In this document: positions 5,705-35,374 of the stretch, one piece after another
Layout: every line of letters begins with the position of its first letter
Position numbering within the stretch: the first letter of the stretch is position 1
DNA from: Alphaproteobacteria bacterium
GTDB lineage: Bacteria; Pseudomonadota; Alphaproteobacteria; Micropepsales; Micropepsaceae
Length of the DNA stretch: 57,720 nt
NCBI GenBank assembly: GCA_003139615.1
Contig: PLJH01000010.1
Location: 45,106 to 102,825 of the forward strand
Reading direction: 5' to 3'
Program-made: the position numbers and the translations under genes
Notes under the pieces: generated by a model
Databases searched by the model: none
What the model was told of the DNA's origin: nothing
What the model saw: the letters and a program-made list of their open reading frames with translations, nothing else

Positions 5705-7819
5705 TCAGCTCGTCAGCACGACGCCGGTGGCTCGATTCTGGCGCTTCAGGAATCCAAGGGCCGCATCCAGGCCCGGACGGGGCGAGCCGTTCCAACGCGC
5801 CACCAGCAAAACGGTGTCCGCAAAGCCCAGAATTGCGGGGGCCGCATTTGACGACAGCGGACCCGAATCCACGATCACGAGATCGCTGTTCTGGCGAAGA
5901 TGCGCGAGCAGTCGCGCCATTTCAGGCGACGCCCAGACGCGACCCGGATCTGGAAAGCGCTGGGCCGGCGAAAGGACGAAAGCACCGGAGCACGGATCCC
6001 GTGCAAGAGCGCTATTGAGCGGGACACTGCCGCGCAGCGTTTCGAGCAATCCCGCCTGCGGTACACCGATCCCCGCCATAAGCGCGGTCGCAGGGGCTTG
6101 CAGATTGCCGTCGATGATCACGACGCGTTGGCCAAGCTGTGCAGCCGCGCGCGCCAGGGCCAGCGCGACGGTTGTCTTGCCCTCCCGCGGATCGGTGGAG
6201 GTGACGGCAATCACTTTGGGCGGATAGCCATATCCGGAAGATGCAATGCGTTGGACGAGCGCGCGCATCTCGAGCCCGAATTGTCCCATCGGCTGATCGA
6301 CGACGCGATCGGCCGCCCGCAGAGCAAGCGCATTCGGCAATTCCGCCACAACGGGTACGCCGCGCAAGGGCACAGCGACAGGTTTCCGCTGCACGCGCTC
6401 AACCGGCATGTCGAAACGCTCGGCGAGCAAGCCCGCCAGCAATCCCAGCATCAGGCTCATCGGGATTGCGGCGAGCGCGATGAGAAGCTTCGGCGGCGAA
6501 CTTGGCAGAGACGACACCGGTGCGTGCGAAATCACATGCACATCCGGTACCTGGACCGCATCCTGGTCCTGCGCCTCGCGCAAGCGCGTCACGAACGCCT
6601 CATACATGCTGCGCGTGGAGACGGCATTGGCCTCGAGCGACTTGAGTTTCACGCGGGCGAGATTCTGATCGGTCGATTCCGACTCCGTCTGGCGCAAACT
6701 TCCCTCGAGCGACGCCACCTGCGCACGCGCCACCGCCATGTCGTTGGCGGCAGATCCGGCAAGCCGGTCCACTTCCTGCGCGATCTTGGCGTCGAGATCG
6801 CGCTTCTGGGATTGGGCCGCGATCAGTTTCGGATTGCGCGCGCCATATCGCGTCTCGAGCTCGGCCTCGTTCTGAATCACCGTGGCTTGCTGCTCGCGCA
6901 ACGACACGATCAGGGGCGACGACACGATCTGCGAGACATCCGCTACATGGCCCGACTGCATGAGAGACTTGATGCGGTCGTAACTTGCCGTCTTGGCCGC
7001 CAGATCGGCACGCGCCTGGACGAGTTGCGTGTCGATGCCACCCATCTGCTGGTCGATAAGCGGCGCGCCGTCTGCCGTATCATTGAGATGGTTCTCGGCT
7101 TTATAGCGTTGTACGGCAGCCTCGTCGGCCTGTACCTGTTGCGCCAGCAGCCGGATGCGTTGCAGAAGCCATTCGGTCGTCTTGTGCGTCGCGTCGAACT
7201 TGGCGCTCAATTGCTGCTCGACATAGGAATCCACGAGCGCGTTCGTGATCCGCGCCGATTTTACCGGATCGCGTGAGGAAAACGTCACTTCGATCGTGGT
7301 AGAAAGGCCCACGGCGTTGACGGACAGCTTCTTCAGGAAATTGTCGACCGTGTTGTTGAATTGCCGGACCTCGGCATCCGTTTCCGTTTCATTGTCGGGA
7401 AACAGCCAATGAATGGGATTGAGTGCGATCAAGGGCGGCAGCGCGTTGAATTCCGGGTCCTGCATCAGGTCCAGCTTGTCGACGACCTGCGCCGCCAGAT
7501 CGCGGGAGGTCAGCACCTGAACCTGGTTCTGCACGGAGGCCGGATCGGTCGGCATGTCGGACAGGACCGCCGAAAGATCGGTGACGTTGTTCTTGCGAGG
7601 ATCGAGCATCACCATCGCCGACGAAGCGTAGTGCGACGGCCAGAGAACCAGCACCAGCAATGTCAGCGCGAACGCGCCGAGCGCGACATTGCGAATAAGC
7701 CGTCCGCGCGTGCGGGTGACCCGCATCAGGTCGTCGAGCTGAAAACTGTCCCGTCCACGCGCGGCGCCGTCGCCGGAATTGGCGACAGATCTGGTTGCTC
7801 CGCGATAGTCTGTGGACAC
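5705..7819 (-). CDS. Exopolysaccharide chain-length regulator with BY-kinase-like ATPase domain (Wzz/GumC-CpsD type)
   Basis: An inner-membrane co-polymerase fusion of 704 residues that would control polymer length and export. The first membrane helix is at ~41-60, followed by a Wzz domain (PRKNNVTDLSAVLS), a long periplasmic coiled-coil region (~160-400), a GNVR-like stretch and a second helix at ~443-465. The C-terminal P-loop domain has Walker A in STDPREGKTT (~540), a Walker A' strand reading VVIIDGN instead of the usual IDxD, and Walker B in LVIVDSG (~643). The protein stops at GVVLTS with none of the tyrosine-rich tail that BY-kinases autophosphorylate. The GTG at 7819 is preceded by GGAGGG at good spacing; the frame extends upstream to 7933 without clear protein character. 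Confidence 0.88.
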   Translation of the reverse strand: MSTDYRGATRSVANSGDGAARGRDSFQLDDLMRVTRTRGRLIRNVALGAFALTLLVLVLWPSHYASSAMVMLDPRKNNVTDLSAVLSDMPTDPASVQNQVQVLTSRDLAAQVVDKLDLMQDPEFNALPPLIALNPIHWLFPDNETETDAEVRQFNNTVDNFLKKLSVNAVGLSTTIEVTFSSRDPVKSARITNALVDSYVEQQLSAKFDATHKTTEWLLQRIRLLAQQVQADEAAVQRYKAENHLNDTADGAPLIDQQMGGIDTQLVQARADLAAKTASYDRIKSLMQSGHVADVSQIVSSPLIVSLREQQATVIQNEAELETRYGARNPKLIAAQSQKRDLDAKIAQEVDRLAGSAANDMAVARAQVASLEGSLRQTESESTDQNLARVKLKSLEANAVSTRSMYEAFVTRLREAQDQDAVQVPDVHVISHAPVSSLPSSPPKLLIALAAIPMSLMLGLLAGLLAERFDMPVERVQRKPVAVPLRGVPVVAELPNALALRAADRVVDQPMGQFGLEMRALVQRIASSGYGYPPKVIAVTSTDPREGKTTVALALARAAAQLGQRVVIIDGNLQAPATALMAGIGVPQAGLLETLRGSVPLNSALARDPCSGAFVLSPAQRFPDPGRVWASPEMARLLAHLRQNSDLVIVDSGPLSSNAAPAILGFADTVLLVARWNGSPRPGLDAALGFLKRQNRATGVVLTS

Positions 7820-7945
7820 GCAATTCCCTCCGCCTCGGGCGGCTTCCCGCCTTCGAGCGCAATTGAACAGGTTTACCTTGGCGCCGGCTGAGGAAAGGTT
7901 AACGTGATCCTTCCAAAGGGCGCTCAATGCCAAGCAATGGCCGCT

Positions 7946-9088
7946 TTACGCCGCACCGAGTGCTGCATCCATGACGGCAGGATCGTCCCATGGCACATCG
8001 TGATGGCCGGTCTTCAGGTAGGGGCTCGCCGGATTGTGTTTCCACTCGCGCGGAAAGAACACGACGATCTCCTTGTCGATGGCGCGGCGCATGCCGACAG
8101 GTCCGGTCGTCAACGTGGACGCGAGCGCCGAAGGGAGATCGCGGCCGGTGCCGAACGGCAATGTGCCGCCCTGGGTCGTGCGCGGGTTGATCTCAATAAG
8201 GTGCACCGCGCCCGAAGCGTCGCGGATGAAATCGAGCCCATGGATGCCGGATAGCCCGAAGCATTCCGCGGCAGCGCGCGTGGCAGCTGCCATCTCCGGG
8301 CAATCCACTCTGCGAATGACACTGGGCGGTCCGATTGCGCCATGCGTCACGAGCACATCGTAGTAGAGCGCACCCACAACGCCGCCCTCATTCGCGGCAA
8401 AGGCGCTTGCAGCAGGCTGGCCTTCGACGAAACGTTGCACACAGACAGAAGTGGCCGCGGGCTTCAGCGCCGCCAGAAGGAAATGCAGGTCCCGCCGCTT
8501 CGCTGTGCGCGCGACGCTGCGAAGGCGGGACGGCGGACTTGAGAGCTTGCGATAGGCGGCGTGCGCCTCTTCGGGGGTATTGGCGATGACGACACCTTCC
8601 CCGCCCCAGCTTTCGTCCGCTTTCAATACGGCAGGCAGACCGGTCACCGCGAGGCAATCGTCAAGCTGCGCTTCGCTCGTGACGGGCAAAGTATCGGGCA
8701 CGCGAACACCCATCTTGCGCAACGCCGCGAGCGACTCGCTGCGCGAAAGCACGCGCTCGTAATTTTCCGGTTGTCCGATCGAACGCGCGACGAGGGCCGC
8801 AACGGCGGAACCCTGCTCGGCATGGTAAAGGCGGAGTAAATGCCGCACCGCACGGTCATCGCAGGGTACGATCAAATCCGGCGCCGCCCGTGCGATCGCC
8901 TTGCGCAACGAACGCAGCGGAGCCAGAGGGCTATAGATGTGGCTGCCCGAGACATAGCGGCTCGACTGAACGGGGGCACCGTCCGGCGACAGCGCGTAAA
9001 CAGTGCAGCCGGCCGCCGCGAACCCGCCCGCGTAACGCGCGGCCGAGGGCCATTTGAGTGTGGCGTAAAGCAGAATATTGCGCGCCAT
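7946..9088 (-). CDS. ATP-grasp domain ligase of unknown substrate
   Basis: An ATP-grasp enzyme, likely forming an amide, ester or similar bond through an acyl-phosphate. Residues 1-90 look like a Rossmann-type pre-ATP-grasp domain (MARNILLYATLKWPSAARYA, then IVPCDDRAVRHLL). The central lobe has the flexible glycine-rich loop ADESWGGEGVV, and the C-terminal lobe has the metal-binding HLIEINPRTTQGG. I set the start at the ATG at 9088 because the Rossmann fold begins there. The frame is open to ATG 9214, which would add 42 residues of unclear character, so that longer start cannot be excluded. It is divergent from the flavin monooxygenase gene. The substrate is not recognisable; related proteins act on amino acids, peptides and sugar-linked amines. 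Confidence 0.82.
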   Translation of the reverse strand: MARNILLYATLKWPSAARYAGGFAAAGCTVYALSPDGAPVQSSRYVSGSHIYSPLAPLRSLRKAIARAAPDLIVPCDDRAVRHLLRLYHAEQGSAVAALVARSIGQPENYERVLSRSESLAALRKMGVRVPDTLPVTSEAQLDDCLAVTGLPAVLKADESWGGEGVVIANTPEEAHAAYRKLSSPPSRLRSVARTAKRRDLHFLLAALKPAATSVCVQRFVEGQPAASAFAANEGGVVGALYYDVLVTHGAIGPPSVIRRVDCPEMAAATRAAAECFGLSGIHGLDFIRDASGAVHLIEINPRTTQGGTLPFGTGRDLPSALASTLTTGPVGMRRAIDKEIVVFFPREWKHNPASPYLKTGHHDVPWDDPAVMDAALGAA

Positions 9089-9237
9089 GAAAAGGCTCTG
9101 ATCGATCTCGCTGCGGCGCGCTGCACGAACCATACCGGCACAAATATTGAAGATTTCCGCGTCAGATACCGTCTCGAAGGCGAATGACGCTCCGGTTCGG
9201 GACATTTGGTTCAAATTGGAACTTTCAGGAGTCGAAT

Positions 9238-10461
9238 ATGAAACAGACTTGCGATGTGGCCATCATCGGTGCGGGTCCCTACGGTTTGTCGGTCGCGGCC
9301 CATCTGGGCATGCGCGGCGTGAATTGTCGCATCTTCGGCAAGCCGCTCGGCACCTGGGCGGGGCATATGCCCAAGAACATGACCTTGAAGTCCGAGGGCT
9401 TCGCGTCGAACCTGTCCGCACCCAGCCCCGATTTCACCATGAAGGCGTGGTCGGGCCGCAAGGGCATTGCTTATGAGGACCAGGGCCAGCCGATCGGCCT
9501 CGACACCTTCCTGGAATATGGCGAAGCGTTCCGCCGCCGTTTCGTGCCCCGGCTCGAAGACGTCCAGGTCACATCGCTCGCGCGCAAGGACGACGGATTT
9601 GTCCTGACATTGGACACGGGCGAAACATTCGAAGCCCGCAATGTCGTGATGGCGGTCGGCGTAACCTGGTTCGCGCACACGCCGCAAAATTTGGCAGCCC
9701 TTCCCAAGGACATGATCTCGCACAGCTATGACCATCGCGACACAAGCGGATTTAAAGGCCGCGAAGTGGCCGTGATCGGGACCGGCTCTTCAGCCATCGA
9801 CCTCGCGCATCAGCTTCAGGAAAGCGGAGCCTCGCCGCACATCATCGGCCGCGCGGACCACATCCAGTATAATTGCACGCCGGATCCCGAACGCGAAAAG
9901 CTGCTCTACAAGCTGCAGAATCCACCTTCGACCATCGGCCGTGGCTGGCGCTCCTATTTCTGCGCGGAAGCGCCCCTCCTGTTCTACCGCATGCCGAAGC
10001 AACTGAAGGAACGTGCGATCCGCAGCCACATGCATCCGGCTGCCGGCTGGTTCATGCGCGAGCAGGTCGAGGGCCGCATTCCGACGACGCTGGGCCACAC
10101 GCCCGTGGCGGCACAGGCAAAGGATGGGCGCGCCGTTCTCACGCTGGCGGACGGCGCCGGCGCGCAGACCACGCAATCCTTCGATCATGTCATTGCGGCA
10201 ACAGGCTATCGCGTGAATCTGAAACGCGTTCCGTTCCTGTCCGAATCCTTGCGCTCTCAGATCGCGCTGACCAACACGTCGCCTCTCGTTTCGGACAATT
10301 TCGAAACCTCGATTCCGGGTCTCTACGCAATCGGTTTGTCGGCGATGGAGATGTTCGGACCTCTCATGCGCTTCATGGTGGGCGCGGAGTTCGCAGCCCC
10401 GCGTGTTGCGGCGCATCTCGAACGCAAGATCGCGATGCCGAAGAGGCAACGGGCAGCATAG
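9238..10461 (+). CDS. FAD/NADPH-dependent monooxygenase-like oxidoreductase
   Basis: A 407-residue two-dinucleotide-binding-domain flavoprotein of the class B monooxygenase type. The FAD-binding motif is VAIIGAGPYGLS at ~7-18 and the NADPH-binding motif is VAVIGTGSSAIDLA near ~178-191. Just before the second motif the stretch ISHSYDHRDTSGFKGR occupies the place of the FMO fingerprint. A VIAATGY strand (~317-323) is typical of the family. Such enzymes hydroxylate amines or oxidise thioethers or ketones. ATG 9238 has AGGAG about 6 bp upstream, deciding this start over the upstream GTG/ATG codons. It sits inside the candidate biosynthetic block, divergent from the ATP-grasp gene and convergent with the adenylating-enzyme operon. 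Confidence 0.86.
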   Translation: MKQTCDVAIIGAGPYGLSVAAHLGMRGVNCRIFGKPLGTWAGHMPKNMTLKSEGFASNLSAPSPDFTMKAWSGRKGIAYEDQGQPIGLDTFLEYGEAFRRRFVPRLEDVQVTSLARKDDGFVLTLDTGETFEARNVVMAVGVTWFAHTPQNLAALPKDMISHSYDHRDTSGFKGREVAVIGTGSSAIDLAHQLQESGASPHIIGRADHIQYNCTPDPEREKLLYKLQNPPSTIGRGWRSYFCAEAPLLFYRMPKQLKERAIRSHMHPAAGWFMREQVEGRIPTTLGHTPVAAQAKDGRAVLTLADGAGAQTTQSFDHVIAATGYRVNLKRVPFLSESLRSQIALTNTSPLVSDNFETSIPGLYAIGLSAMEMFGPLMRFMVGAEFAAPRVAAHLERKIAMPKRQRAA

Positions 10462-10467
10462 CGGCGG

Positions 10468-10616
10468 ACCCCTTTCCGTCCGCCTCGCGAAGTGCGAGGC
10501 GTCCACCTTCACCCGCAAGGGGGGGAAGGTTAGAAAAAGGGCGAAGCGCATCTATTTTTAACCTTCCCCTTCGCGGGGGAAGGTGCCGAGCGCAGCGAGG
10601 CGGAAGGGGGCTTGCG
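10468..10616. repeat. Palindromic REP-type doublet between convergent genes
   Basis: The gap between the monooxygenase and the adenylating-enzyme operon consists of two inverted copies of a ~55 bp element. The left copy runs from about 10470 to 10530 (contains ccaccttcacccgcaag then gggaaggtta). The right copy, about 10557-10616 (taaccttccccttcgcg then gaggcggaaggggg), is its reverse complement with a few differences. Each copy has its own small hairpin and the pair can fold into one long stem. The arrangement is typical of dispersed bacterial intergenic palindromes. Lying between converging genes, it may also stop transcription from both sides. Confidence 0.75.
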
Positions 10617-10620
10617 CCGC

Positions 10621-12150
10621 TTACACCATCGCAGCCAATTCACTCTTGAGGATTTTGCCCGTCGGACTGACGGGCATCGCAGGCACCACGACGATGCGCG
10701 ATGGACGTTTATAGGGCGCAAGTTTCGATGTCGCATAATCCGAAAGTTCGTCGGTCGTTGTTTGCGCGCCGTCCGCGAGATGGACGAAGGCCAGCACGTC
10801 TTCGGTTCCGTCGACCTGCTTGCCGATGACGGCCGAGCGCGCGACATCGGGATGGGCGTTCAGGACGCCTTCGATCTCGGCGGGATAAACATTGAAGCCG
10901 AAGCGAATGATCAGCTCCTTGCAGCGCCCGACGATGAAGACATTTCCGTCTTCCATGCGCGCGAGATCGCCCGACTTGAACCAGCCGTCTGCCGTCACGG
11001 CAACTGCAGTCTCGTCCGGTGCGCGATAATACCCCTTCATGATTCCTGGACCGCGCACCCACAATTCGCCGACTTCGTTTGGAGCCGCGGTCAGGCCATC
11101 GGGACCGACAAGCTTTGCTTCGACGCCGGGAATAAGACGTCCCACCGAGCAATCCGTGCGCGGCGCCTGCAGCGACGTCAGCGTGATCGTCGGCGAGCAC
11201 TCGGTGATGCCATAGCCATTGTGCAGGGTGCGGCCGAACGCGGCTTCGACGGTCGATTTCGTGGCCGCATCGAGCGGCGCCCCCGCCGACGACATGATGC
11301 GCAGCGCGGGGCATACAACAGGCACGAACTTCTTGCGGGTCGCATATTCGGCCAGCATCGCGTGCATGGACGGCGTGCCGACCAGCAGCGATACGCGCTC
11401 GCGATCGAGCGCCGCGAATGTCGCGGCAGGATCGAAGCGCGATGTGAGCCGCACCTGTGCGCCGCTGACGAGCGAGCCCAGGAGGATTCCCGTGAGCCCA
11501 AGGATATGGGAGATCGGCATCACGACATAGGTTTTGTCGTCGGGACCGAGTGAACGCACCTCAGCCGATGCGCGCGCGACGAACAGCAGATTGCTTTGCG
11601 AGAGCATGACGCCTTTGGGCTTACCCGTCGTGCCCGATGTGTAGAGAAGTGCGGCGATGCGTTGCGTGGGGTCGGGTTCGACCGGCTCCGGTACAGCCGC
11701 TTCGTTCAAGGGCGAAAGCGCCACCGCGCCGAACGAAGCCGGATCGTACAACGCGGCACACAGCCTCGCGGCATGGGCCTTCGCGCGCGCCGACACACCT
11801 ACGGTCAGGACGATGCGGCGGGCGTCGCTGTGATCGCGGATCTCGTCGATCTCGCGGTCGGACAGACGCGCGTTGACGACGACCGGCCATGCGCCACAGA
11901 CATTCAGCGCCAGATAGATTGCCACCGCCGCGCAACAATTTTCGCAAACCAGCATCACCCGATCGCCCGGCCTGACACCGGATTGCTCCAGCCACGTCAC
12001 GGTGGCGGCAATCGCCTGATTCAGCTCGCGATAGGTCCAGTCCCTCGCGTCATCGGTCAGCACAATGCGATCGGGTGCTAACGCCGCCCAATACGGGATG
12101 ATTTCGCCGACCGTCGCCGGCGGGAGCCCGCTTTGTTCCTTATCCGGCAT
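10621..12150 (-). CDS. Acyl/amino-acid adenylating enzyme (ANL superfamily, class I AMP-ligase)
   Basis: Activates a carboxylic acid as its adenylate and loads it onto a thiol, either CoA or the carrier protein encoded just upstream. All core motifs are visible: A3 LLYTSGTTGKPKGVM, A5 NGYGITECSPT, a GELWVRGPGIMKGYY segment, A7/A8 WFKSGDL with GRCKELIIRFGFNVYPAEIE, and the A10 lysine in SPTGKILKSEL. Length is 509 residues, like free-standing FadD-type or NRPS A enzymes. ATG 12150 has GGAGA about 7 bp upstream; ATG 12156 is too close to that site. The start overlaps the end of the carrier-thioesterase gene by 11 bp, so it is the last gene of a four-gene operon. The substrate is not predictable with confidence. 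Confidence 0.88.
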   Translation of the reverse strand: MPDKEQSGLPPATVGEIIPYWAALAPDRIVLTDDARDWTYRELNQAIAATVTWLEQSGVRPGDRVMLVCENCCAAVAIYLALNVCGAWPVVVNARLSDREIDEIRDHSDARRIVLTVGVSARAKAHAARLCAALYDPASFGAVALSPLNEAAVPEPVEPDPTQRIAALLYTSGTTGKPKGVMLSQSNLLFVARASAEVRSLGPDDKTYVVMPISHILGLTGILLGSLVSGAQVRLTSRFDPAATFAALDRERVSLLVGTPSMHAMLAEYATRKKFVPVVCPALRIMSSAGAPLDAATKSTVEAAFGRTLHNGYGITECSPTITLTSLQAPRTDCSVGRLIPGVEAKLVGPDGLTAAPNEVGELWVRGPGIMKGYYRAPDETAVAVTADGWFKSGDLARMEDGNVFIVGRCKELIIRFGFNVYPAEIEGVLNAHPDVARSAVIGKQVDGTEDVLAFVHLADGAQTTTDELSDYATSKLAPYKRPSRIVVVPAMPVSPTGKILKSELAAMV

Positions 12151-13291
12151 TGGCATTCTCCGGGAGACCTGCGCGCGCAAGGCACGCCGAGACGCAGTCT
12201 GCGACATGGTCCGCGTGCCTATGAATCATCGAAGCGTGGTCGCCGGGGGCCGTGTGAAGCTCGAACGCGCGCCCCACGCGCGACCAGACATTTGCCGGGT
12301 CGGTCGGGAACACGACCTGCGCCGTTTCGGCTTTGATGAAGGTAATTTTTCCGTCATACGGCTTGGGAACATAGGACAGCAACGCAATGCCGCCCGCGTC
12401 CTGAACCTGCCGGAGCGCGAGCGGAAGATTTGCATCGGGTTCGCCCAGCCATTGCCGCGCGGGATTTGGCTGCGTCGCCGTGCCAGGCGCGCTGTTTCTG
12501 TGCGCGAGCCGTGCGAACCGATCGATCAAGCTCTTTGCTGTTTCCCGGGGCGAACGCGTGGCCAGCAATCGCACGCGGTTGAGCCACACGCGCGCGCTTC
12601 TCGTCACGCGCGACTTGAGCGGCCATGTCCGGGGAAGTGCATAGGAGTCGATCATCAGAAGTAGCGCGATATCTTTTTCTCCGAGGCTGCGCGCCATCTC
12701 CAATGCCACGAGCCCGCCAAACGAGTAGCCGGCAAGACGATAAGGACCGATGGGCTGCACTTCCCGGATCGCTTTGAGATAGAACGCCGCCATCTCCGCG
12801 ATGGATTCGAGCGGCGGCTCCGATCCGTCGAGGCCGCGGGCTTGAATCGCATAGACCGGACTGTCCGTTCGGATCTGCTTTCCGAGCGTATCGAGTTCGA
12901 TCACCGTTCCACCAATCCCGTGCACGATAAAAAGCGGCGCGGCGCCCTCACCCGATTTAAGAAGCACAAGCGGCGAGAATTTCGCAGTGAGGCCGCTTTC
13001 GAGCAGATCTGCCTGTTCGGCGATCGTCGGCGCGTCATAGATCGTGGTGATCGGAAATTTCTGACCGAACTTCTGTTCGATCTCCAGCAACAGACCGACG
13101 GCGAGCAAGGAATCGCCGCCAAGATCGAAGAAATTGCTGTCGGGCAGGATCGGCGATGTCTGCAGATTGCGCGACCAGATATCGATGAGGGTTTCGACAA
13201 TCGTCTCGCGCACCGCGCAACTATCATTTGCCGTCGGCGCAACGGCGACATCCACGTCCGGTTTGGCGTTTGTGCGCGGCTCGGCGGTCAC
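12140..13291 (-). CDS. Free-standing carrier protein-thioesterase didomain (NRPS/PKS type)
   Basis: A 383-residue fusion of a phosphopantetheinyl carrier domain and a type I thioesterase, with no condensation or ketosynthase domain. The carrier motif NFFDLGGDSLLAV places the phosphopantetheine attachment at Ser61. The alpha/beta-hydrolase part has an oxyanion HGIGG (~124-128), the nucleophile elbow GYSFGG with Ser190, and a C-terminal GDHASM carrying the likely catalytic His (~352). The GTG at 13291 overlaps the stop of the MetA-like gene (GTGA), which decides the start. It should receive an acyl or aminoacyl group from the adenylating enzyme encoded immediately downstream and release it by hydrolysis, transfer or cyclisation. 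This is the most unusual gene of the operon. Confidence 0.9.
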   Translation of the reverse strand: MTAEPRTNAKPDVDVAVAPTANDSCAVRETIVETLIDIWSRNLQTSPILPDSNFFDLGGDSLLAVGLLLEIEQKFGQKFPITTIYDAPTIAEQADLLESGLTAKFSPLVLLKSGEGAAPLFIVHGIGGTVIELDTLGKQIRTDSPVYAIQARGLDGSEPPLESIAEMAAFYLKAIREVQPIGPYRLAGYSFGGLVALEMARSLGEKDIALLLMIDSYALPRTWPLKSRVTRSARVWLNRVRLLATRSPRETAKSLIDRFARLAHRNSAPGTATQPNPARQWLGEPDANLPLALRQVQDAGGIALLSYVPKPYDGKITFIKAETAQVVFPTDPANVWSRVGRAFELHTAPGDHASMIHRHADHVADCVSACLARAGLPENANAG

Positions 13292-14313
13292 GATCCGCGC
13301 AGGCCCGCAGTGCGCGCCTCTCCCCGCCCTTCCGAATGGAAGCTCCACGCAATTCCGGTTTGCGCGATCTGATGAAGCCAGACGCGGAAGATTCCGATTG
13401 CCGACCCTCTGCGTTCGCTTGCGCCTGACGAACGGCCGATCGGAGACGGAAAGTCACGCATGAACTCAGGATTGCGCTCTTGGTGGACGCGATCACGGAA
13501 CCGCGTCAGTTCGTCCAATTCCACGTCCGAGAAATAACCCACCGGCATCAGCGGATACGCATCCATCTCGCCCGTCAGAAAGCGCCGCACGTCGCGTTTG
13601 TGCTCGCGCCACAGCGACAGCGGGTCGTATTCCGGGTGCCCCTGGAAGAACAGGAGCAGATTGCGTTTGCGCTTGACGAACAGGTCCACGCCGGCTTCGC
13701 GCGAATAGGTGAGAACCTGGTAACCGCGCGCTTCCAGTGCATCGGCCGACACTTCGTTCCAGCGCGAATGGGCGATTCTGACGACGGGAGCCAGCGTCTG
13801 GGTCAGTTCATGCGTGCAGACCACGCCATGCTCGAACACGCCGAAGCGCTTTTCCGGCAAGCGCCGGCGCTCGATGCCGTCGTAGTGCAGCACGGCGGCG
13901 TGCGACGCCAGGCACGAAAAAATCGTGGGCGGACCGTTTTGCGCGATCCAGTCGAACAATTGCGTCATCGCGCCCCAATAGGGTTCCTCGCGCAGATCAG
14001 GCAGCTTCGGTTCGGTGCCGGTGACGATCAAACCATCGAGTTGTGCATGCCGCAGCTCGGAGAAATCGCGATAGCGTTGGTCGAGCAGATGATGCTCTCC
14101 CGCTTCGCCCCGCGGAACGCCGGGCAGCGCATAGAGGCTCAACTCGATCTGCCGGTCGGTCGCGGCAGTGGCGAGCACAGCGCGAAACTGTCGTTCGGTG
14201 CTTTCAAGCGCCGAGTCCGGCATGTTGTTGACGAGCCCGATGCGGAGAGGGCGATCGAATCCGCGGCCCGGCGCATAACGGCCCCACAGTCCACGGTCGC
14301 TCACCACGGGCAT
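13288..14313 (-). CDS. MetA-type homoserine O-acyltransferase-like protein
   Basis: A class I glutamine-amidotransferase-fold acyltransferase of the MetA family, which normally transfers an acetyl or succinyl group from CoA to homoserine. The nucleophile is Cys134 in IFSCLASHAA. The His-Glu pair is in GHPEYD (~220), and an RFGVFEHG segment lies between them. Length is 341 residues, a little longer than standard MetA because of a C-terminal tail of ~40 residues (after about residue 295) without clear family character. It starts 3 bp after the O-acetylhomoserine sulfhydrylase stop and overlaps the carrier-thioesterase start. With the sulfhydrylase it could supply homocysteine. Acetyl versus succinyl specificity cannot be assigned, and a specialised acceptor is possible given the neighbours. 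Confidence 0.85.
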   Translation of the reverse strand: MPVVSDRGLWGRYAPGRGFDRPLRIGLVNNMPDSALESTERQFRAVLATAATDRQIELSLYALPGVPRGEAGEHHLLDQRYRDFSELRHAQLDGLIVTGTEPKLPDLREEPYWGAMTQLFDWIAQNGPPTIFSCLASHAAVLHYDGIERRRLPEKRFGVFEHGVVCTHELTQTLAPVVRIAHSRWNEVSADALEARGYQVLTYSREAGVDLFVKRKRNLLLFFQGHPEYDPLSLWREHKRDVRRFLTGEMDAYPLMPVGYFSDVELDELTRFRDRVHQERNPEFMRDFPSPIGRSSGASERRGSAIGIFRVWLHQIAQTGIAWSFHSEGRGEARTAGLRGS

Positions 14314-14316
14314 GAT

Positions 14317-15642
14317 TCAGAACCCTGCCGCCACAAGGCGCGGCGGTATGACGGACTCGGTCAGGAAAGGGACCGCGGCTTCAAGCGCCTGCGACAAATC
14401 CTCGATGATATCGTCCATATGCTCGATGCCGACGCTGAGACGGATCATTTCGGGCTTCACACCCGCGCGCTCCAACTCTGCAGGCGTCAATTGCCGGTGC
14501 GTGGTCGAAGCGGGATGACAGGCGACGGATTTCGCGTCGCCGATATTGACGAGACGCTTGATGAGCTTCAGCGCGTCATAGAATTTCCGCCCCGCTTCGA
14601 AGCCGCCTTTGAGTCCGAAGGTCAGGAATGAGCCGCCGCGACCACCAAGATATTTCTTGGCCAGCGCATGACAGGGATCGTTCACGTCGGCGAGATATTG
14701 GCACCACTCGACGCTGGGATGCGTGCCCAGATAGCCGGCGACACGCGTCGCGTTTTTCACATGGCGCTCCATGCGCAGCGGCAAGGTCTCGATACCCTGC
14801 AACAGCAGGAACGCACTGAGCGGCGACAGCACCGAACCGGTGTTGCGCTGGCAGACTGTGCGGCAGCGCGCGATATAGGCACTGTCTCCATATTGCTCGG
14901 TATAGATTACGCCGTGATAGGCGGGCTCCGGCGCTGTCAGCATGGCGAACCGCTTGCGATGCTCCGTCCAGGGAAATTTGCCGCTATCCACGATCGCGCC
15001 GCCCATGGTCGTGCCGTGGCCGCCGATGAACTTCGTCAGTGAGTGGACGACGATATCGGCGCCATAGCGGATGGGCTTCAGGAGGATCGGCGTGGCGATC
15101 GTGTTGTCGACGATCAGCGGCACGCCGTTGCGATGGGCGACTTCCGCAAGCGCTTCGAGGTCCGCGATGTTGCCGGCCGGATTCCCGATGCTTTCGCAAT
15201 AGACCGCGCGGGTGTTCTCGTCGATCAGCCTCTCGACATCGGCGGCGTTGTCGCTCGCGGCGAAGCGCACATCGACGCCCTGCTTTCGGAACACATGCTC
15301 GAACAGGGTGACCGTCGCGCCATAGAGCTGCGGCAGGGTGACGATATTGGTGCCTGCTTCGACGAGATTGGCGATGGCATAGTGGACCGCCGCCATGCCC
15401 GAACCCACGCACAGCGCGCCGCAGCCGAGTTCCAGCGCGGCGAGACGCTCCTCCAGCACGGCGGTCGTGGGGTTGCTCAGGCGGCTGTAGATGTTGCCGG
15501 GGGTTTCGAGGTTGAAGAGCGCCGCGCCATGGTCCGCGCTATCGAATTCGTAAGCAACGGTCTGGTAGATCGGAACCGCGACGGATTTCGTCGTCGGGTC
15601 CGAATCATAACCGGCATGGATCGAAATGGTCTCGTCGCGCAT
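14317..15642 (-). CDS. O-acetylhomoserine aminocarboxypropyltransferase (sulfhydrylase, MetY type)
   Basis: A PLP enzyme of the Cys/Met metabolism family that replaces the O-acyl group of acylhomoserine with sulfide (giving homocysteine) or another thiol. The N-terminus DETISIHAGYDSDPTTKSVA is characteristic, as are YSRLSNPTTAVLEERLAALE, the GSGMAAVHYA stretch, and the PLP lysine in HSLTKFIGGHG. At 441 residues it has the length of MetY rather than of the shorter MetB/MetZ. It is the first gene of the four-gene operon and is followed after 3 bp by the MetA-like acyltransferase. The divergent gene is the ThDP enzyme. Either this pair makes methionine for the cell or it feeds the carrier-thioesterase system. 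Confidence 0.92.
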   Translation of the reverse strand: MRDETISIHAGYDSDPTTKSVAVPIYQTVAYEFDSADHGAALFNLETPGNIYSRLSNPTTAVLEERLAALELGCGALCVGSGMAAVHYAIANLVEAGTNIVTLPQLYGATVTLFEHVFRKQGVDVRFAASDNAADVERLIDENTRAVYCESIGNPAGNIADLEALAEVAHRNGVPLIVDNTIATPILLKPIRYGADIVVHSLTKFIGGHGTTMGGAIVDSGKFPWTEHRKRFAMLTAPEPAYHGVIYTEQYGDSAYIARCRTVCQRNTGSVLSPLSAFLLLQGIETLPLRMERHVKNATRVAGYLGTHPSVEWCQYLADVNDPCHALAKKYLGGRGGSFLTFGLKGGFEAGRKFYDALKLIKRLVNIGDAKSVACHPASTTHRQLTPAELERAGVKPEMIRLSVGIEHMDDIIEDLSQALEAAVPFLTESVIPPRLVAAGF

Positions 15643-15791
15643 GATTGTGAGCCGCAGACCGGTCAGAACCCGAGAGCGGACTGCTCCTTTCGAAGATCAC
15701 CCCGTACCGAGTGTCGTGGGAATTGATTACTACTTGTTTGTGAAAACGAATCGCGGAGCCCGGAGGCTGTGCCAAAAGTGGAACGGTTATC
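15643..15791. promoter_or_regulatory. Divergent promoter region, metY-like operon / ThDP enzyme
   Basis: This 149 bp gap separates two divergent units and must contain both promoters and leaders. A short AT-richer core lies at about 15721-15750 (ttgattactacttgtttgtg). I looked on the metY side for SAM-riboswitch features common upstream of alphaproteobacterial met genes and could not line up a convincing pseudoknot. The functional elements remain unassigned. Confidence 0.4.
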
Positions 15792-17333
15792 GTGAACGGC
15801 GCTGAAAGCCTGATCCGCACCTTGATGCAAGGTGGCGTCGATACCTGCTTCATGAATCCGGGAACGTCCGAAATGCATTTCGTCGCGGCGCTCGACCAGG
15901 TGCCCCAGATGCGCGGCGTTCCGTGCCTGTTCGAAGGCGTCGTATCCGGCGCCGCCGATGGCTACGCCCGGATGGCGGGACGGCCTGCGAGCACATTGTT
16001 CCATCTTGGGCCAGGGCTCTCGAACGCTCTGGCGAACATGCACAATGCGGGCCGGGCGCACGTACCGATGGTTAACATTGTCGGAGAGCACGCGACGTTC
16101 CATCGCCAATATGATGCCCCGCTGACCTCCGACATCGAGGCCATCGCGAGACCTTATTCGCGCTGGCTGCGCACAACGGCCGCGGCGAGCGATGTCGGGC
16201 AAGATTGCGCCGAAGCGATCGCCGCGGCGCGCACGGCGCCGGGCCGGATCGCGACGCTTATTCTGCCGGCCGACGCCGCATGGGGCGAAGGCGGGCGTGT
16301 CGCGGCCGTTCCTGCGAGCCCGCCGGCGCCCGCCGTCGAGCAATCGCGGATCGATGATGCGGCGATTGCACTGCGCAACGGCAAGCGAACAGCCATCATC
16401 CTCGGCGCGCATTTGACGGAAGGCGCCACGCTGCTCACGGCGGCGAAAATTTCCGCAGTTACGAACGCGAAACTGCTTGCGCCTTTTGCCTTCACGCGCA
16501 TCTCGCGCGGCGCGGGCCTGCCGGGCGTGACGCGAATTCCGTATGTGACCGGCGATGCGATCGAAATGTTGCGCGAATTCGAGCAATTGATTTTGCTGGG
16601 CGCGACGCCTCCGGCAGCATTCTTTGGACACCCGACCCGCCCGAGCCTTCTTGCCCGCGAAGATTGCGAGATTCAAACGCTCGCAGGCATCGACGAGGAT
16701 TGCACAGGCGCGCTCGCCGCTCTCGCCGACGCGTTGCATGCAAACAAGGCAGAGCCCCACCTGCAGGTCTCCGAGCGCCCTGCCCTGCCGAACGGCGAAA
16801 TTACCCTGGCCGGGCTTGCTGCGACGGTCGCGGCACTCCTGCCCGAAAACGCCATCGTGGTCGACGAGTCCGTCACCTCGGGCCGCAACATGATGGCCGC
16901 GACGAAAGGTACGCCGCCGCACGACTGGCTTGTGAACACGGGTGGCTCCATCGGGATCGGGCTGCCCATGGCGGTCGGCGCGGCCGTCGCGTGTCCGGAT
17001 CGGCCTGTGCTGTGCCTCGAAGCGGACGGCAGCGGCATGTACACGTTGCAGGCGCTGTGGACCGCCGCCCGCGAGAACCTGAACATCACGACTGTCGTCT
17101 TCGCCAATCGCGCCTATGCGATCTTGAAAGGCGAGCTTGCCGGTATGGGCGGCAATCCCGGTCCGCGCGCACTCGACATGCTCGATATCGGCCGGCCGGA
17201 TATCGATTGGGTCTCTCTCGCGAAGAGCCTTGGAATCCCCGCACGTCGCGCCACGTCGCTTGACGAATTTGCAATGGCGTTACGGCACGGATTCATGAGC
17301 AACGGCCCCAATCTGATCGAAATACCTTTATAG
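15792..17333 (+). CDS. Acetolactate synthase-like thiamin diphosphate enzyme
   Basis: A 513-residue ThDP-dependent enzyme of the acetolactate synthase/benzoylformate decarboxylase family. These act on 2-oxo acids by decarboxylation, carboligation or both. The N-terminal Pyr domain has the catalytic Glu in CLFEGVVSGAADGYARM (~43-59). The middle domain follows, and the C-terminal PP domain has the ThDP/magnesium motif EADGSGMYTLQALW with the later Asn in VVFANRAYAIL; the usual GDG is ADG here. The GTG at 15792 has GGAACGG upstream. No small regulatory subunit gene (ilvH) is adjacent, so ordinary branched-chain amino-acid synthesis is not the obvious role. It is followed by a class IV aminotransferase that could act on its oxo-acid product. 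Confidence 0.87.
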   Translation: MNGAESLIRTLMQGGVDTCFMNPGTSEMHFVAALDQVPQMRGVPCLFEGVVSGAADGYARMAGRPASTLFHLGPGLSNALANMHNAGRAHVPMVNIVGEHATFHRQYDAPLTSDIEAIARPYSRWLRTTAAASDVGQDCAEAIAAARTAPGRIATLILPADAAWGEGGRVAAVPASPPAPAVEQSRIDDAAIALRNGKRTAIILGAHLTEGATLLTAAKISAVTNAKLLAPFAFTRISRGAGLPGVTRIPYVTGDAIEMLREFEQLILLGATPPAAFFGHPTRPSLLAREDCEIQTLAGIDEDCTGALAALADALHANKAEPHLQVSERPALPNGEITLAGLAATVAALLPENAIVVDESVTSGRNMMAATKGTPPHDWLVNTGGSIGIGLPMAVGAAVACPDRPVLCLEADGSGMYTLQALWTAARENLNITTVVFANRAYAILKGELAGMGGNPGPRALDMLDIGRPDIDWVSLAKSLGIPARRATSLDEFAMALRHGFMSNGPNLIEIPL

Positions 17334-17359
17334 TCGCAGCTCAAACGCGGAGAGATCGC

Positions 17360-18235
17360 ATGGTTGTCGGCTGGGACGGTTGGTCCAAAACCTGGACATT
17401 TTTCGAAGGCGCCTGGCACGAAGGCAATGTCGCAATCCTCGGCCCGCGCAGTCATGCGACATGGCTTGCGTCGACCGTGTTCGACGGCGCCCGCGCCTTC
17501 GAGGGAACGACACCCGATCTCGACCGCCATCTCGAGCGCGTCAACCGGTCGGCGACGGCCATGTTTCTCAATCCCGTCGTGTCGGAAGAGATGTGGACCG
17601 ATCTCGTCAAACAGGGCCTCGCGCGCTTCGACCGCAAGGCCGAGCTTTACATCAAGCCGATGTACTGGGCCGAGCGAAATGGAAGTTCGGCCATCGCGCC
17701 GGATCCCGATTCGACCTGCTGGTGCCTCTCGCTATACGAGCTGCCGATGCCGGCCGAGACGGGCGGCTTGTCGATCACGCTGTCGCCCTTTCGCCGCCCC
17801 ACTATGGAATGCATGCCGACCAACGCGAAAGCGGCCTGCCTCTATCCCAACAACGCGCGCGCGGCCCTCGAAGCGAAATCGCGCGGATTCGACAATGCGC
17901 TGCTGCGCGACATGCTCGGCAATATTGCGGAAACCGCGAGCTCGAATGTCTTTCTTGCCAAGGACGGCGTCGTGTTCACGCCGGCGCCCAACGACACCTT
18001 CCTGAACGGCATCACACGCCAGCGCGTGATCACGCTGTTGCGCGACGACGGCGTGACGGTTCTGGAGACGACCTTGACCTATCGCGATTTCGAGCAGGCG
18101 GACGAAATCTTCACCAGCGGGAACTACGGCAAGGTGCAGTCCGTGACCCGCATCGACGACCGTGCATTGCAGCCGGGACGGTTCTACCGCAAAGCGCGCG
18201 ACCTTTACTGGTCGTTTGCCCATTCCGGCGGCTGA
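17360..18235 (+). CDS. Class IV (branched-chain-type) aminotransferase
   Basis: A PLP fold-type IV transaminase of 291 residues, similar to branched-chain amino-acid and D-amino-acid aminotransferases. Visible family marks are VFDGARAFEG near the N-terminus, the PLP lysine region TNAKAACLYPNNARA (~153-167), GFDNALLRD, and GNIAETASSNVFLAKDG, followed by NGITRQRVITLL. The ATG at 17360 is preceded by GGAGAG. It lies 26 bp after the ThDP gene and is clearly in the same transcription unit. The pair would make an oxo acid and aminate it, or the reverse. It converges with the GH10 gene with a 9 bp gap. The exact amino donor and acceptor cannot be assigned. Confidence 0.88.
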   Translation: MVVGWDGWSKTWTFFEGAWHEGNVAILGPRSHATWLASTVFDGARAFEGTTPDLDRHLERVNRSATAMFLNPVVSEEMWTDLVKQGLARFDRKAELYIKPMYWAERNGSSAIAPDPDSTCWCLSLYELPMPAETGGLSITLSPFRRPTMECMPTNAKAACLYPNNARAALEAKSRGFDNALLRDMLGNIAETASSNVFLAKDGVVFTPAPNDTFLNGITRQRVITLLRDDGVTVLETTLTYRDFEQADEIFTSGNYGKVQSVTRIDDRALQPGRFYRKARDLYWSFAHSGG

Positions 18236-18244
18236 AGGATAGAC

Positions 18245-19354
18245 TCACCCGGTTGCGAGGACTCGCGCCATCGCGTGCCACATCGGCGTGCGCTGCATAT
18301 CCGCGTCGAGCGGCAAGGCACGCGGGCTGTATCCGGTCAGCGTTTCGCGCCAGCCGGACGGCTTGAGGAAACGGTCAGACAATCCCCAGGTCAACACCGC
18401 CTCCGTCGCGCTGTTGTCCAGCACGACTTCGAGAAAACGCCGGCTTGCATTCGCCACAGCCTGATCGCGCGTAGCGATATCCGACGGTCCGCCGGAATCG
18501 TCCACGTCGTGCTCTGTGATAAGAATCTTCAGACCCATCTGCTGCACTTTGCTCAGGAAATCGCGCAGCTTCTTCTGATCGATCGGCGGACCGAACGCCT
18601 GCAAATGGCCTTGCAGTCCGAGCCCGTCGATCGGCACGCCGCGGGCAAGAGCCCGTTCCAGAAAATCGAGTGTCGCCGCGCGGAACCGGTCGTGTTTGTC
18701 GCCGCTGTTTTCGCAGCCCCAGTCGTTATAGACGAGTTGCGCCGTGGGATCGGCCGCGCGCGCTGCATGAAACGCCGCGTCGATGTAGCCGGGACCGAAC
18801 GCCTGCAGCCAAAGTGTATTTCTGAGATTGTCGCTCCGGCCGTCTTCCGGCGATATCGCCTCGTTGACGACGTCCCAGGATTTGATCCGGCCTTTGCAGT
18901 GCCGCATCACGGCGTCGATGTATCCCGTTTGCAAAGCGGGATCCCGCTCGGCCAGCACGGCCGCGTCGAGCCAGCCGGGATTGCGATGGTGCCATACGAG
19001 CGTGTGCGCACGGAACGCCATGCCATGCGCCTGCGCAAATGCCATCAGCGTATCGATACCGGAAAAATCGTAGCGGCCGCGCACCTCTTCGATCACGCCA
19101 CGCTTCATTTCATATTCGGCGACAAGAATGCCCGCTTCCCGTGCGAGACTTGCGGCGAATTCCGGATCGCGCAATTCGTAGGAGCCCACGGCCGAGCCGT
19201 AAACGATGCCGCGCTGGGCCGCGATCGCGCGAAGCGGCGCCGACTGATCGTCCACGAAACTCGCGCGCAGCAATCCGGCGAAGGACGGCGTGGCGAATGC
19301 TCCCGCCGTACCCGAGAGAGCGAACAGTCCGAGAAGGGATCGACGCGTGGGCAT
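18245..19354 (-). CDS. Exported GH10 family endo-beta-xylanase-like glycanase
   Basis: A 369-residue glycoside hydrolase of family 10, normally endo-1,4-beta-xylanases. The N-terminus MPTRRSLLGLFALSGTAGAF is a twin-arginine signal with an AxA-like end (FATPSFA), so the enzyme is exported. The barrel shows HTLVWHHRNPGWL (~120), the acid/base Glu in SWDVVNEAIS (~161), and the nucleophile Glu in ILITEHDVDDSG (~280); LTWGLSDR matches the conserved Trp loop. I used ATG 19354; the frame extends far upstream, but only as a shadow of the glycosyltransferase gene. It lies 5 bp downstream of that gene at the end of the polysaccharide operon, so it may trim or release the locus's own polymer rather than plant xylan. 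Confidence 0.9.
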   Translation of the reverse strand: MPTRRSLLGLFALSGTAGAFATPSFAGLLRASFVDDQSAPLRAIAAQRGIVYGSAVGSYELRDPEFAASLAREAGILVAEYEMKRGVIEEVRGRYDFSGIDTLMAFAQAHGMAFRAHTLVWHHRNPGWLDAAVLAERDPALQTGYIDAVMRHCKGRIKSWDVVNEAISPEDGRSDNLRNTLWLQAFGPGYIDAAFHAARAADPTAQLVYNDWGCENSGDKHDRFRAATLDFLERALARGVPIDGLGLQGHLQAFGPPIDQKKLRDFLSKVQQMGLKILITEHDVDDSGGPSDIATRDQAVANASRRFLEVVLDNSATEAVLTWGLSDRFLKPSGWRETLTGYSPRALPLDADMQRTPMWHAMARVLATG

Positions 19355-19359
19355 TCCGC

Positions 19360-20328
19360 TTACCGCACGGCGCTGTGCGGCTGCGCTGCAATTTCGTCGG
19401 TGCGCGTCCAGACTGCTCCCCGGTGTCTGGCTACAAACGTATCGGCGATCCAGCGATAGAGCCGATCCGAAAGGAATATCTGCAAAAATACGATGGCTGC
19501 CAGTTTCGGCCGATAGCATCCGCGGATGACGGCCCCCAGATAGAGAATCAGCGCCCGGAAGAAATTGGTCGTCACCACGCCTTTGGCGACGGTCCATCCA
19601 CGCCCGCCGCGATACGCCTCGTCGGGAATTTGCGGCCGTAAAATCTCGAGCCACCCTATCAGATACGCACCCTTGCGGCCTGCCGACGAGCGATTGGGAT
19701 TGAAGGCATCGCGCCACACGGCAGCCGGCTCTTCGGACATGACAAATTTGCAGCCCGCGAGAAACAGCCGGATTGCGAAATCCGTATCCTGTGCATAAGG
19801 CAGCGCCTCGCTGTAGCGCACCTGCCTCGCCATGGCCGCGCCGACGACGAGCGTGGTGGTCGGCACAAAGCCGCGGTCGCACAGAAGATATGTCGCCATG
19901 TGTTCGCCGGGTCTGATCGCGCGTGGCGGCTTGATGAATGTGCGACCCTTGCCGCGGTCCACGATCGCTTTCGCGTATCCCGCGACACCCGCGGTACCTT
20001 CCAGCAATTGCCGCATCGTCGCCAGATGGCGCGGCAGGAACCAGTCGTCCGAATCGAGGAATGCGATAAAGCGGCCGCGTGCGAGATCGATGCCCGTGTT
20101 GCGCGCGGCGCCGCCGCCTTTGTTGTCCTGACGAATGAAACGGATACGCGCATCCGAATAGCGGTCGATCGCAGCTTTGGGATCGTCGCGCGAGCCATCG
20201 TCCACGACGATGACTTCGAAATCCTGCTCAGTCTGATCGAGTACCGATTGCAGCGCCATCGAAAAAACATCGGCTCGGTTGTAAACCGGAATCACGACCG
20301 AGAAAAAGGGTGTTTGCGGTTCCGTCAC
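19360..20328 (-). CDS. GT2 family glycosyltransferase
   Basis: A GT-A-fold inverting glycosyltransferase of 322 residues, probably adding a sugar to the lipid-linked repeat unit at the cytoplasmic face. The start VTEPQTPFFSVVIPVYNRAD leads straight into the fold; VVDDGSRDD and FLDSDDWF (the DxD region binding the nucleotide sugar) follow at ~40 and ~95. C-terminal hydrophobic segments (FFRALILYLGAVIRG and the next stretch) suggest membrane association. GTG 20328 overlaps the Wzy stop as GTGA, deciding the start. It lies between the polymerase and the GH10 genes in the operon. Sugar specificity is unknown. Confidence 0.88.
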   Translation of the reverse strand: MTEPQTPFFSVVIPVYNRADVFSMALQSVLDQTEQDFEVIVVDDGSRDDPKAAIDRYSDARIRFIRQDNKGGGAARNTGIDLARGRFIAFLDSDDWFLPRHLATMRQLLEGTAGVAGYAKAIVDRGKGRTFIKPPRAIRPGEHMATYLLCDRGFVPTTTLVVGAAMARQVRYSEALPYAQDTDFAIRLFLAGCKFVMSEEPAAVWRDAFNPNRSSAGRKGAYLIGWLEILRPQIPDEAYRGGRGWTVAKGVVTTNFFRALILYLGAVIRGCYRPKLAAIVFLQIFLSDRLYRWIADTFVARHRGAVWTRTDEIAAQPHSAVR

Positions 20329-35060: not shown

Positions 35061-35374
35061 GGTGTCCCCCACCGAGCCGCAGCGCGCCGGATTACGATTA
35101 TAGGCTCTCTATCGCGCGGGAAGATAGGGCGGAAATAGGGATGTGTCCGGCCGGCGACATCTGCCAAATCCGGCTGCACGCCGCGCGTTTGCCGGACCCT
35201 CTGCGCAGGCAGCTTTTTGCAGTTAAATCGAAAATTGCGACCAGAGACCCAACAATGTTAGCCTGCGTGGTTATTTGCGGACTCACGCCGAGTTTCGGGG
35301 GAACATGCATCGACGTATAACACTTGCATTGCTCCCCGCTTCCGCAGCGGTTGGTCTCGAGAATCGTTCGTAGA
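35061..35374. promoter_or_regulatory. Divergent promoter region, adhesin / methyltransferase-ligase pair
   Basis: 314 bp between two divergent units. It holds the adhesin ribosome site (GGGGGA on the minus strand just upstream of 35060). An AT-richer tract around 35215-35275 (ttttgcagttaaatcgaaaattg) is the likeliest place for the promoters. No clear operator repeats were seen, and no gene is supported. Confidence 0.45.

What the first reader, a model, noticed from the sequence alone, without database searches (positions are those of the whole stretch)
7946..18235. Candidate biosynthetic system: split carrier-thioesterase module with homocysteine and oxo-acid enzymes inside a polysaccharide locus
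Eight adjacent small-molecule genes lie between the Wzz/BY-kinase-like gene and the other polysaccharide genes: ATP-grasp ligase, flavin monooxygenase, adenylating enzyme, carrier-thioesterase, MetA-type acyltransferase, MetY-type sulfhydrylase, ThDP enzyme and class IV aminotransferase. Four share one operon with 3 bp gaps or overlaps. The set contains every step for a small product: precursor supply (homocysteine; oxo acid plus transamination), activation, carrier loading, oxidation and ligation. I know of no named system with this composition. The product could be a free metabolite or an amino-acid decoration of the polysaccharide.
Basis: partly seen in the sequence, partly recalled or inferred. 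Interest (0 to 1): 0.8.

Follow-up and report, generated by a model that had tools for sequence, protein, structure and literature searches.

The report
Eight-gene small-molecule unit in slime locus
Eight neighbouring genes in a soil bacterium, found side by side again in a bacterium of another phylum, are predicted to build an unusual homoserine-derived compound that is likely used with the slime polysaccharide encoded around them; no described pathway with this gene set turned up in the papers searched.

Summary
In detail: eight intact genes fill 7946-18235 between Wzz/BY-kinase and GH10. Comparison supports one system. (1) A core (AMP-ligase, carrier-TE, MetA, MetY, ThDP enzyme; aminotransferase in 7 of 10 genomes) recurs in 6 other genomes of the genus and 3 Acidobacteriota; one Acidobacteriota genome has all eight genes contiguous in another order, beside Wzz genes. 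(2) The flavoprotein/ATP-grasp pair has two lineages. The window's pair sits in the polysaccharide locus but belongs to the standalone lineage (100/99 in both trees), present in 6 of 7 core genomes and 7 of 53 others. (3) Seven relatives have the same locus with the slot empty, so the block looks like one insertion. (4) A MetX-family gene and other PLP sulfhydrylase-family genes lie elsewhere, so this is probably not the housekeeping methionine route. The product is unknown. Best guess: an aldehyde (aminotransferase, ThDP) coupled to O-acylhomoserine (MetA) by MetY, then oxidised, activated and ligated, as in fungal flavunoidine and fusaric acid routes. Homocysteine is not excluded. The ligase has His where amino-acid adenylation domains have Asp, so it probably does not activate a free alpha-amino acid.

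The parts
7946..9088 (-). ATP-grasp ligase (ORF open to 9214)
   Evidence: PF02655; AlphaFold model pLDDT 91.4, ATP-grasp fold; E341, N343, R345 invariant in 26 rows
9238..10461 (+). FAD/NADPH oxidoreductase, N-hydroxylase-like fold (ORF open from 9184)
   Evidence: PF13738, PF13434; full-length fold matches to ornithine/cadaverine/putrescine N-hydroxylases, model pLDDT only 74.9
9089..9237 (.). divergent intergenic region of the flavoprotein/ATP-grasp pair
   Evidence: divergent pair conserved in relatives
10621..12156 (-). AMP-forming acyl/aryl acid ligase (start uncertain, 12150-12207)
   Evidence: PF00501 277 bits; His at the A4-like motif and A10 Lys in 10 of 10
12140..13291 (-). carrier (PP-binding) - thioesterase didomain
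   Evidence: PF00550+PF00975; carrier Ser in 9 of 10, thioesterase Ser, Asp and His in 10 of 10
13288..14313 (-). MetA-type homoserine O-acyltransferase
   Evidence: NF003776 374 bits over cut-off 358; SCLA Cys and GHPEY in 10 of 10, acyl-specificity position K/L/Q/R/H
14317..15642 (-). MetY-type PLP enzyme
   Evidence: TIGR01326 603 bits over cut-off 495; the nine other core loci are 67-84% identical to it
15643..15791 (.). divergent intergenic region of the core
   Evidence: same divergence of MetY and ThDP enzyme in 6 of 6 genus relatives
15792..17333 (+). ThDP enzyme, benzoylformate-decarboxylase-like
   Evidence: NF005760 735 bits over cut-off 363; nearest solved structures benzoylformate decarboxylase
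17360..18235 (+). class IV (branched-chain type) aminotransferase
   Evidence: NF009896 470 bits over cut-off 262
5705..7933 (-). flank: Wzz/BY-kinase, left edge of the slot
18245..19882 (-). flank: GH10, right edge of the slot (ORF; true start probably further in)

Best explanation
The eight genes are a conserved unit sitting in one slot of an exopolysaccharide locus, and they are predicted to make a homoserine-derived acid that would be activated on a carrier and likely joined to a partner by the thioesterase and the ATP-grasp ligase. Proposed order (all inferred from families): the aminotransferase and the ThDP enzyme turn a branched-chain or similar amino acid into a 2-oxo acid and then an aldehyde; MetA makes O-acylhomoserine; MetY replaces the acyloxy group with the aldehyde's enolate, giving a cyclic imino acid of the pipecolate/picolinate kind; the N-hydroxylase-like flavoprotein oxidises it; the AMP-ligase loads the carboxylate on the carrier and the thioesterase hands it to a nucleophile; the ATP-grasp enzyme makes an amide bond. 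The likely destination is the exopolysaccharide, because the block fills the very slot that holds another lineage of the ATP-grasp gene, with or without the flavoprotein, in 25 relatives.
For: Core together in 6 of 6 other genus genomes with a carrier-TE hit at E <= 1e-70 and in 3 Acidobacteriota; all eight genes contiguous in G100 (L261). Core-type ThDP (63% identity or more) occurs in exactly the 7 core genomes of 60. Standalone-lineage ATP-grasp in 6 of 7 core genomes and 7 of 53 others, Fisher p = 2e-4. The window's pair falls in that lineage, 100/99, in the ATP-grasp (40 rows) and flavoprotein (28 rows) trees. Slot empty in 7 relatives. MetX-family gene elsewhere. Polysaccharide-type neighbours again in Acidobacteriota: Wzz, GT2, exosortase, XrtA-like ligase and amidotransferase. 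Precedents: flavunoidine joins O-acetylhomoserine with 2-oxoisovalerate and loads a single-module NRPS (PMC8902786 section 15); the fusaric acid cluster has homoserine acetyltransferase, FUB7, NRPS-like and flavin enzymes (PMC10967133 passages); FUB7 is among the seven best sequence matches of MetY with solved structures.
Against: In the 6 genus relatives the core lies outside the polysaccharide locus, and the ATP-grasp/flavoprotein pair, found in 5 of them, is unlinked. No aminotransferase beside the core in 3 of 10. G010 has no ATP-grasp hit at E <= 1e-30 (genome 75% complete); G101 has only a different ATP-grasp near the core. G100's carrier lacks the GGDS Ser (reads GGNPW). Carrier-TE relatives of 40-49% (L056, L057, L061) show no other core gene in the stretch fetched. 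MetY scores better with plain sulfhydrylases than with FUB7. By alignment the ThDP enzyme lacks the second catalytic His of benzoylformate decarboxylase. No product, expression or activity data. Genomes in the Fisher test are related, not independent.
Confidence: 0.45

Rival explanations
1. Sulfur version: MetA and MetY make homocysteine (or an S-alkyl homologue), the aminotransferase and ThDP enzyme supply an acyl or acyloin part, and the ligase/carrier-TE links that acid to it, giving an N-acyl homocysteine or thiolactone-like free metabolite or signal.
For: MetY passes the O-acetylhomoserine sulfhydrylase cut-off and matches plain MetY best. The ligase is of acyl/aryl-acid type.
Against: A MetX-family gene and other PF01053 genes exist elsewhere; the constant ThDP partner is not needed for homocysteine.
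Confidence: 0.3
2. Free secreted metabolite unrelated to the polysaccharide; the window's position in the locus is accidental.
For: In 6 of 7 core genomes of the genus the core is away from the polysaccharide locus.
Against: The window's block fills exactly the slot used by the other lineage of the pair, and the Acidobacteriota cores also lie beside polysaccharide-type genes.
Confidence: 0.35
3. Spare methionine/branched-chain amino acid genes: MetA/MetY are a second methionine route and the ThDP enzyme/aminotransferase a catabolic pair, with the carrier-TE a bystander.
For: NCBIfam names are housekeeping-like; a ThDP paralogue (56% identity or less) is found in 30 further genomes of 60.
Against: Core-type ThDP occurs only with the carrier-TE core in the 60 genomes, and the same gene set recurs across two phyla in different orders.
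Confidence: 0.08

Closest known systems
Flavunoidine pathway FlvA/FlvB/FlvI (fungal; PMC8902786 section 15 read)
   Same: O-acylhomoserine joined by a PLP lyase to a branched-chain 2-oxo acid unit; the amino acid is then loaded on a single-module NRPS that transfers it
   Different: FlvA is fused to an alpha-KG dioxygenase, here a ThDP enzyme; no SDR such as FlvB in the block; ligase and carrier-TE are separate proteins; bacterial and beside polysaccharide genes
Fusaric acid FUB cluster (fungal; PMC10967133 passages)
   Same: homoserine acetyltransferase + FUB7 + NRPS-like + flavin enzyme
   Different: polyketide synthase supplies the chain; no ThDP enzyme, aminotransferase or ATP-grasp among the 12 genes listed there
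Rhizobitoxine rtxA operon (Bradyrhizobium; PMC3222319 passages)
   Same: aminotransferase plus O-acetylhomoserine sulfhydrylase-like enzyme making a homoserine-derived amino acid
   Different: both in one protein, and serinol is the partner; no carrier-TE, ligase or ThDP enzyme in the passages seen
Exosortase/XrtA exopolysaccharide loci (TIGR03098 ligase, TIGR03108 amidotransferase)
   Same: AMP-forming ligase and amidotransferase inside a polysaccharide locus; such or related genes lie beside the three Acidobacteriota cores
   Different: own genome has no exosortase match; TIGR03098 is not among the 25 best NCBIfam matches of the window's ligase; MetA/MetY/ThDP are not part of that set as recalled
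Methionine direct sulfhydrylation (MetA/MetX + MetY)
   Same: two enzyme families shared
   Different: six extra enzymes, and a MetX-family gene present elsewhere

Membership tests
NRPS single module (A, T, TE) | adenylation enzyme with A3 and A10 motifs | tested here: met
   YT[ST]G[ST]TG and A10 GK in 10 of 10
NRPS single module (A, T, TE) | Asp anchoring the alpha-amino group (recalled motif) | tested here: not met
   P-x-S-H at that motif in 10 of 10; so an acid ligase rather than an amino-acid A domain
NRPS single module (A, T, TE) | carrier GGxS serine | tested here: met
   9 of 10 including the window; lost in G100
NRPS single module (A, T, TE) | thioesterase Ser-Asp-His | tested here: met
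   10 of 10
MetA homoserine acyltransferase | catalytic Cys and His/Glu | tested here: met
   SCLA and GHPEY in 10 of 10
MetA homoserine acyltransferase | Glu (acetyl) or Gly (succinyl) at the acyl-specificity position (recalled) | tested here: not met
   K/L/Q/R/H instead, by alignment; acyl donor unknown
MetY O-acylhomoserine sulfhydrylase | TIGR01326 cut-off and PLP Lys | tested here: met
   603 bits vs 495; TKF with the PLP-Lys in 10 of 10; the stricter PRK06084 cut-off (790) is not reached (654.6)
FUB7/FlvA-type C-C coupling enzyme | accepts an aldehyde enolate | not testable with these tools
   sequence does not separate FUB7 from MetY
Benzoylformate decarboxylase | Ser26, Glu47, His70, His281 (recalled) | tested here: inconclusive
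   Glu and His70 kept in 10 of 10, Ser26 is Thr, His281 not conserved by alignment
ATP-grasp ligase | fold and E-x-N-x-R residues | tested here: met
   model pLDDT 91.4; residues invariant in 26 rows; the 50 best fold hits are ATP-grasp enzymes, biotin carboxylase first, L-amino-acid ligases among them, TM 0.43-0.60
N-hydroxylating monooxygenase | full-length fold match | tested here: inconclusive
   TM 0.65-0.73 to SidA/PvdA/KtzI/DesB, but pLDDT 74.9, and a ferredoxin reductase and disulfide reductases also score
Exosortase/XrtA exopolysaccharide system | exosortase in the genome | tested here: not met
   no PF09721 match in G000; one beside the core in L054

The most novel reading that the evidence does not exclude
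A bacterial pathway that makes a pipecolate- or picolinate-type acid by MetY-catalysed C-C coupling of a decarboxylase-made aldehyde to O-acylhomoserine, and a split ligase/carrier-thioesterase that acylates an exopolysaccharide with it: nonribosomal tailoring of a slime polysaccharide, moved as an eight-gene cassette between docking slots and phyla.
Probability: 0.13. Interest if true: 0.85.

Novelty: new variant of a known kind. Interest (0 to 1): 0.6.

Why it matters
It would be an undescribed small biosynthetic cassette shared by Alphaproteobacteria and Acidobacteriota, without a large NRPS or PKS. If the product is attached to the exopolysaccharide, it would link nonribosomal-type chemistry to polysaccharide decoration. 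Relatives with the same locus and an empty slot give natural controls.

Tried and rejected
Carrier-TE alone against genome contigs found nothing. Acidobacteriota phylum: 20 of 396 genomes have a ThDP relative at E <= 1e-100, and besides G100 none exceeds 50% identity; their loci hold only 1.5 kb flanks, and at most 3 candidates per genome were scored. Plasmids: MetA relatives 38% or less, ThDP relatives under 60%; no core was sought around them. A sigma-54-like motif before standalone-lineage ATP-grasp genes: 4 of 33 upstream sequences reached shuffle p of 0.02 or below, three of them near -50 in that lineage and one of the EPS type, and the pattern scan was at chance; not claimed. Ten paper searches listed no paper that appears to describe this gene set; listings were seen as titles and abstract starts, and three papers as passages or one section.

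Considered and rejected: 'only methionine genes'. Composition does not mark the block as foreign (GC 0.628 against 0.627 and 0.621), which neither supports nor excludes an insertion.

Rows dropped: G043 is left out of the slot count (contig ends); locus L292 of G007 is not its polysaccharide locus; six of the 22 other flavoprotein rows first listed (L146, L147, L152, L163, L188, L139) were left out, two because of a stop.
Full report
WHAT IS THERE. The window lies on contig 75 of a 4.6 Mb, 142-contig draft genome. Of the carrier-TE relatives listed with an organism name, six are called Rhizomicrobium sp. and one Methylocella sp., so the genome is taken as an alphaproteobacterium of the Rhizomicrobium group. 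Eight open genes fill 7946-18235: ATP-grasp, flavoprotein, AMP-ligase, carrier-thioesterase, MetA, MetY, ThDP enzyme, class IV aminotransferase. MetY-MetA-carrierTE-ligase form a tightly packed minus-strand run (3 bp gap, GTGA overlap); ThDP enzyme and aminotransferase are divergent from it; ATP-grasp and flavoprotein are divergent from each other.

ONE SYSTEM. A carrier-TE search of the genus found 7 of 69 genomes at E <= 1e-70 (first seen among 100 relatives). In all six besides the window's, carrier-TE, AMP-ligase, MetA, MetY and ThDP enzyme lie together with the same divergence of MetY and ThDP enzyme; the aminotransferase is beside them in three of six. Core-type ThDP (63% identity or more) is present in exactly these 7 of 60 genomes; a paralogue of 56% or less is found in 30 other genomes and also in the window's own. 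Among 80 named loci, the core appears in one alphaproteobacterial contig (L053, which has the length and gene order of the G040 contig) and in three Acidobacteriota: L058 (Ca. Sulfotelmatobacter), L054, and L055 with L139 (two contigs of one genome). In L058/L261 all eight genes are contiguous in a different order. L054 has seven of them plus a second flavoprotein, a different ATP-grasp (PRK12767-like), a second carrier-TE, a P450 and an exosortase. Over ten genomes: MetY, MetA, ligase, carrier-TE and ThDP enzyme 10 of 10; aminotransferase 7 of 10. Some carrier-TE relatives of 40-49% identity in Acidobacteria (L056, L057, L061) show no other core gene in the stretch held.

THE SLOT. In relatives the polysaccharide locus mostly runs deacetylase, sugar transferase, WecG, a 432-aa protein without a Pfam match, GT2, Wzy, GT2, (GH10), then a slot, then Wzz. 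The slot holds ATP-grasp, with the flavoprotein in about half, in the 25 genomes that give the 'EPS' rows of the ATP-grasp tree; it is empty in 7 (G010, G012, G034, G040, G045, G054, G022), six of which carry the core elsewhere. A second lineage of the flavoprotein/ATP-grasp pair lies in other places in 12 genomes (in G043 only the ATP-grasp is seen, at a contig end). In trees of 40 ATP-grasp and 28 flavoprotein rows this lineage is one strongly supported group (100/99), and it contains the window's pair, although that pair sits in the slot. So in the window the slot holds the standalone-lineage pair plus the whole core, most simply one insertion. Standalone-lineage ATP-grasp is present in 6 of 7 core genomes and 7 of 53 others (Fisher p = 2e-4; the genomes are related, so this overstates independence; the seventh core genome is 75% complete).

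NOT HOUSEKEEPING. The genome has one HTS/MetA gene, here, but a MetX-family gene elsewhere (477.5 bits, just under the strict 500-bit cut-off) and, elsewhere, four full-length and two contig-end PF01053 matches above 165 bits. The MetA pocket position that is Glu or Gly in acetyl/succinyl enzymes (recalled) is K/L/Q/R/H here.

CHEMISTRY (inferred). The ligase keeps A3 and A10 motifs but has His where amino-acid adenylation domains have Asp (recalled motif), 10 of 10; its nearest solved relatives are feruloyl-CoA, fatty-acyl-CoA and 4-coumarate ligases, a gramicidin A-domain and salicylate-AMP ligase. Carrier Ser is kept in 9 of 10 (lost in G100), thioesterase Ser/Asp/His in 10 of 10. The flavoprotein model (pLDDT 74.9) fits ornithine, cadaverine and putrescine N-hydroxylases over its full length, though the two best E-values are a ferredoxin-NADP reductase. 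The ATP-grasp model is confident. MetY scores best with plain sulfhydrylases, FUB7 fourth and fifth. The fungal flavunoidine pathway joins O-acetylhomoserine with 2-oxoisovalerate using a PLP lyase and loads the product on a single-module NRPS (PMC8902786 section 15); the fusaric acid cluster pairs a homoserine acetyltransferase with FUB7 (PMC10967133 passages). An aminotransferase and a decarboxylase-like ThDP enzyme could supply a matching aldehyde. This maps onto all core genes, but no step is shown, and a homocysteine route is not excluded.

POLYSACCHARIDE LINK. For: slot sharing, and Acidobacteriota cores beside Wzz, GT2, an XrtA-like ligase (TIGR03098, 505.6 bits, cut-off 592), XrtA-like amidotransferases (TIGR03108, below cut-off; they pass the asparagine synthase model) or an exosortase. 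Against: in six of seven core genomes of the genus the core is elsewhere, and the window's genome has no exosortase match.

LITERATURE. Ten searches listed no paper that appears to describe this set; only open-licence papers are held.

Noticed in passing
L039-L043, L045 (G021, G029, G046, G028, G027, G065): Relatives carry a long open frame (about 890-1080 aa) with ligase and carrier-thioesterase matches, i.e. the split module fused, without MetA/MetY in the stretch held; in G027 and G028 it lies next to a homologue of the 432-aa polysaccharide-locus protein.
   Followed up: partly
L058 10001-10999: Carrier motif reads ELGGNPW: the phosphopantetheine serine is missing in the one relative with all eight genes contiguous.
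   Followed up: partly
P0112: A carrier-TE homologue begins with a MetA-like N-terminus (LRIGLIHNMPDS), as if metA had been deleted leaving its start fused to the next gene.
   Followed up: no
L265, L252, L169, L254: Homologous genes next to the standalone ATP-grasp/flavoprotein pair in four loci; the one scanned (L265) is a PF13578-type methyltransferase.
   Followed up: partly
window about 9120-9145 and upstream of standalone-lineage ATP-grasp genes: A GG-N10-GC (sigma-54-like) site is the best-scoring one near -50 in 5 of 12 sequences of that lineage; statistically weak.
   Followed up: partly
L163, L016, L147: In-frame stop in one relative's flavoprotein match (L163) and one TGA in the G054 carrier-TE match (L016), decay or assembly error; the stop in the L147 match is at its very start, probably before the gene.
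   Followed up: no
window 31188-35072: 1294-aa frame with a two-partner-secretion (TPS) domain and GLUG motifs near the polysaccharide locus.
   Followed up: no
window 22547-23845: 432-aa conserved polysaccharide-locus protein without Pfam or NCBIfam match; found in 16 of 16 genomes searched.
   Followed up: partly
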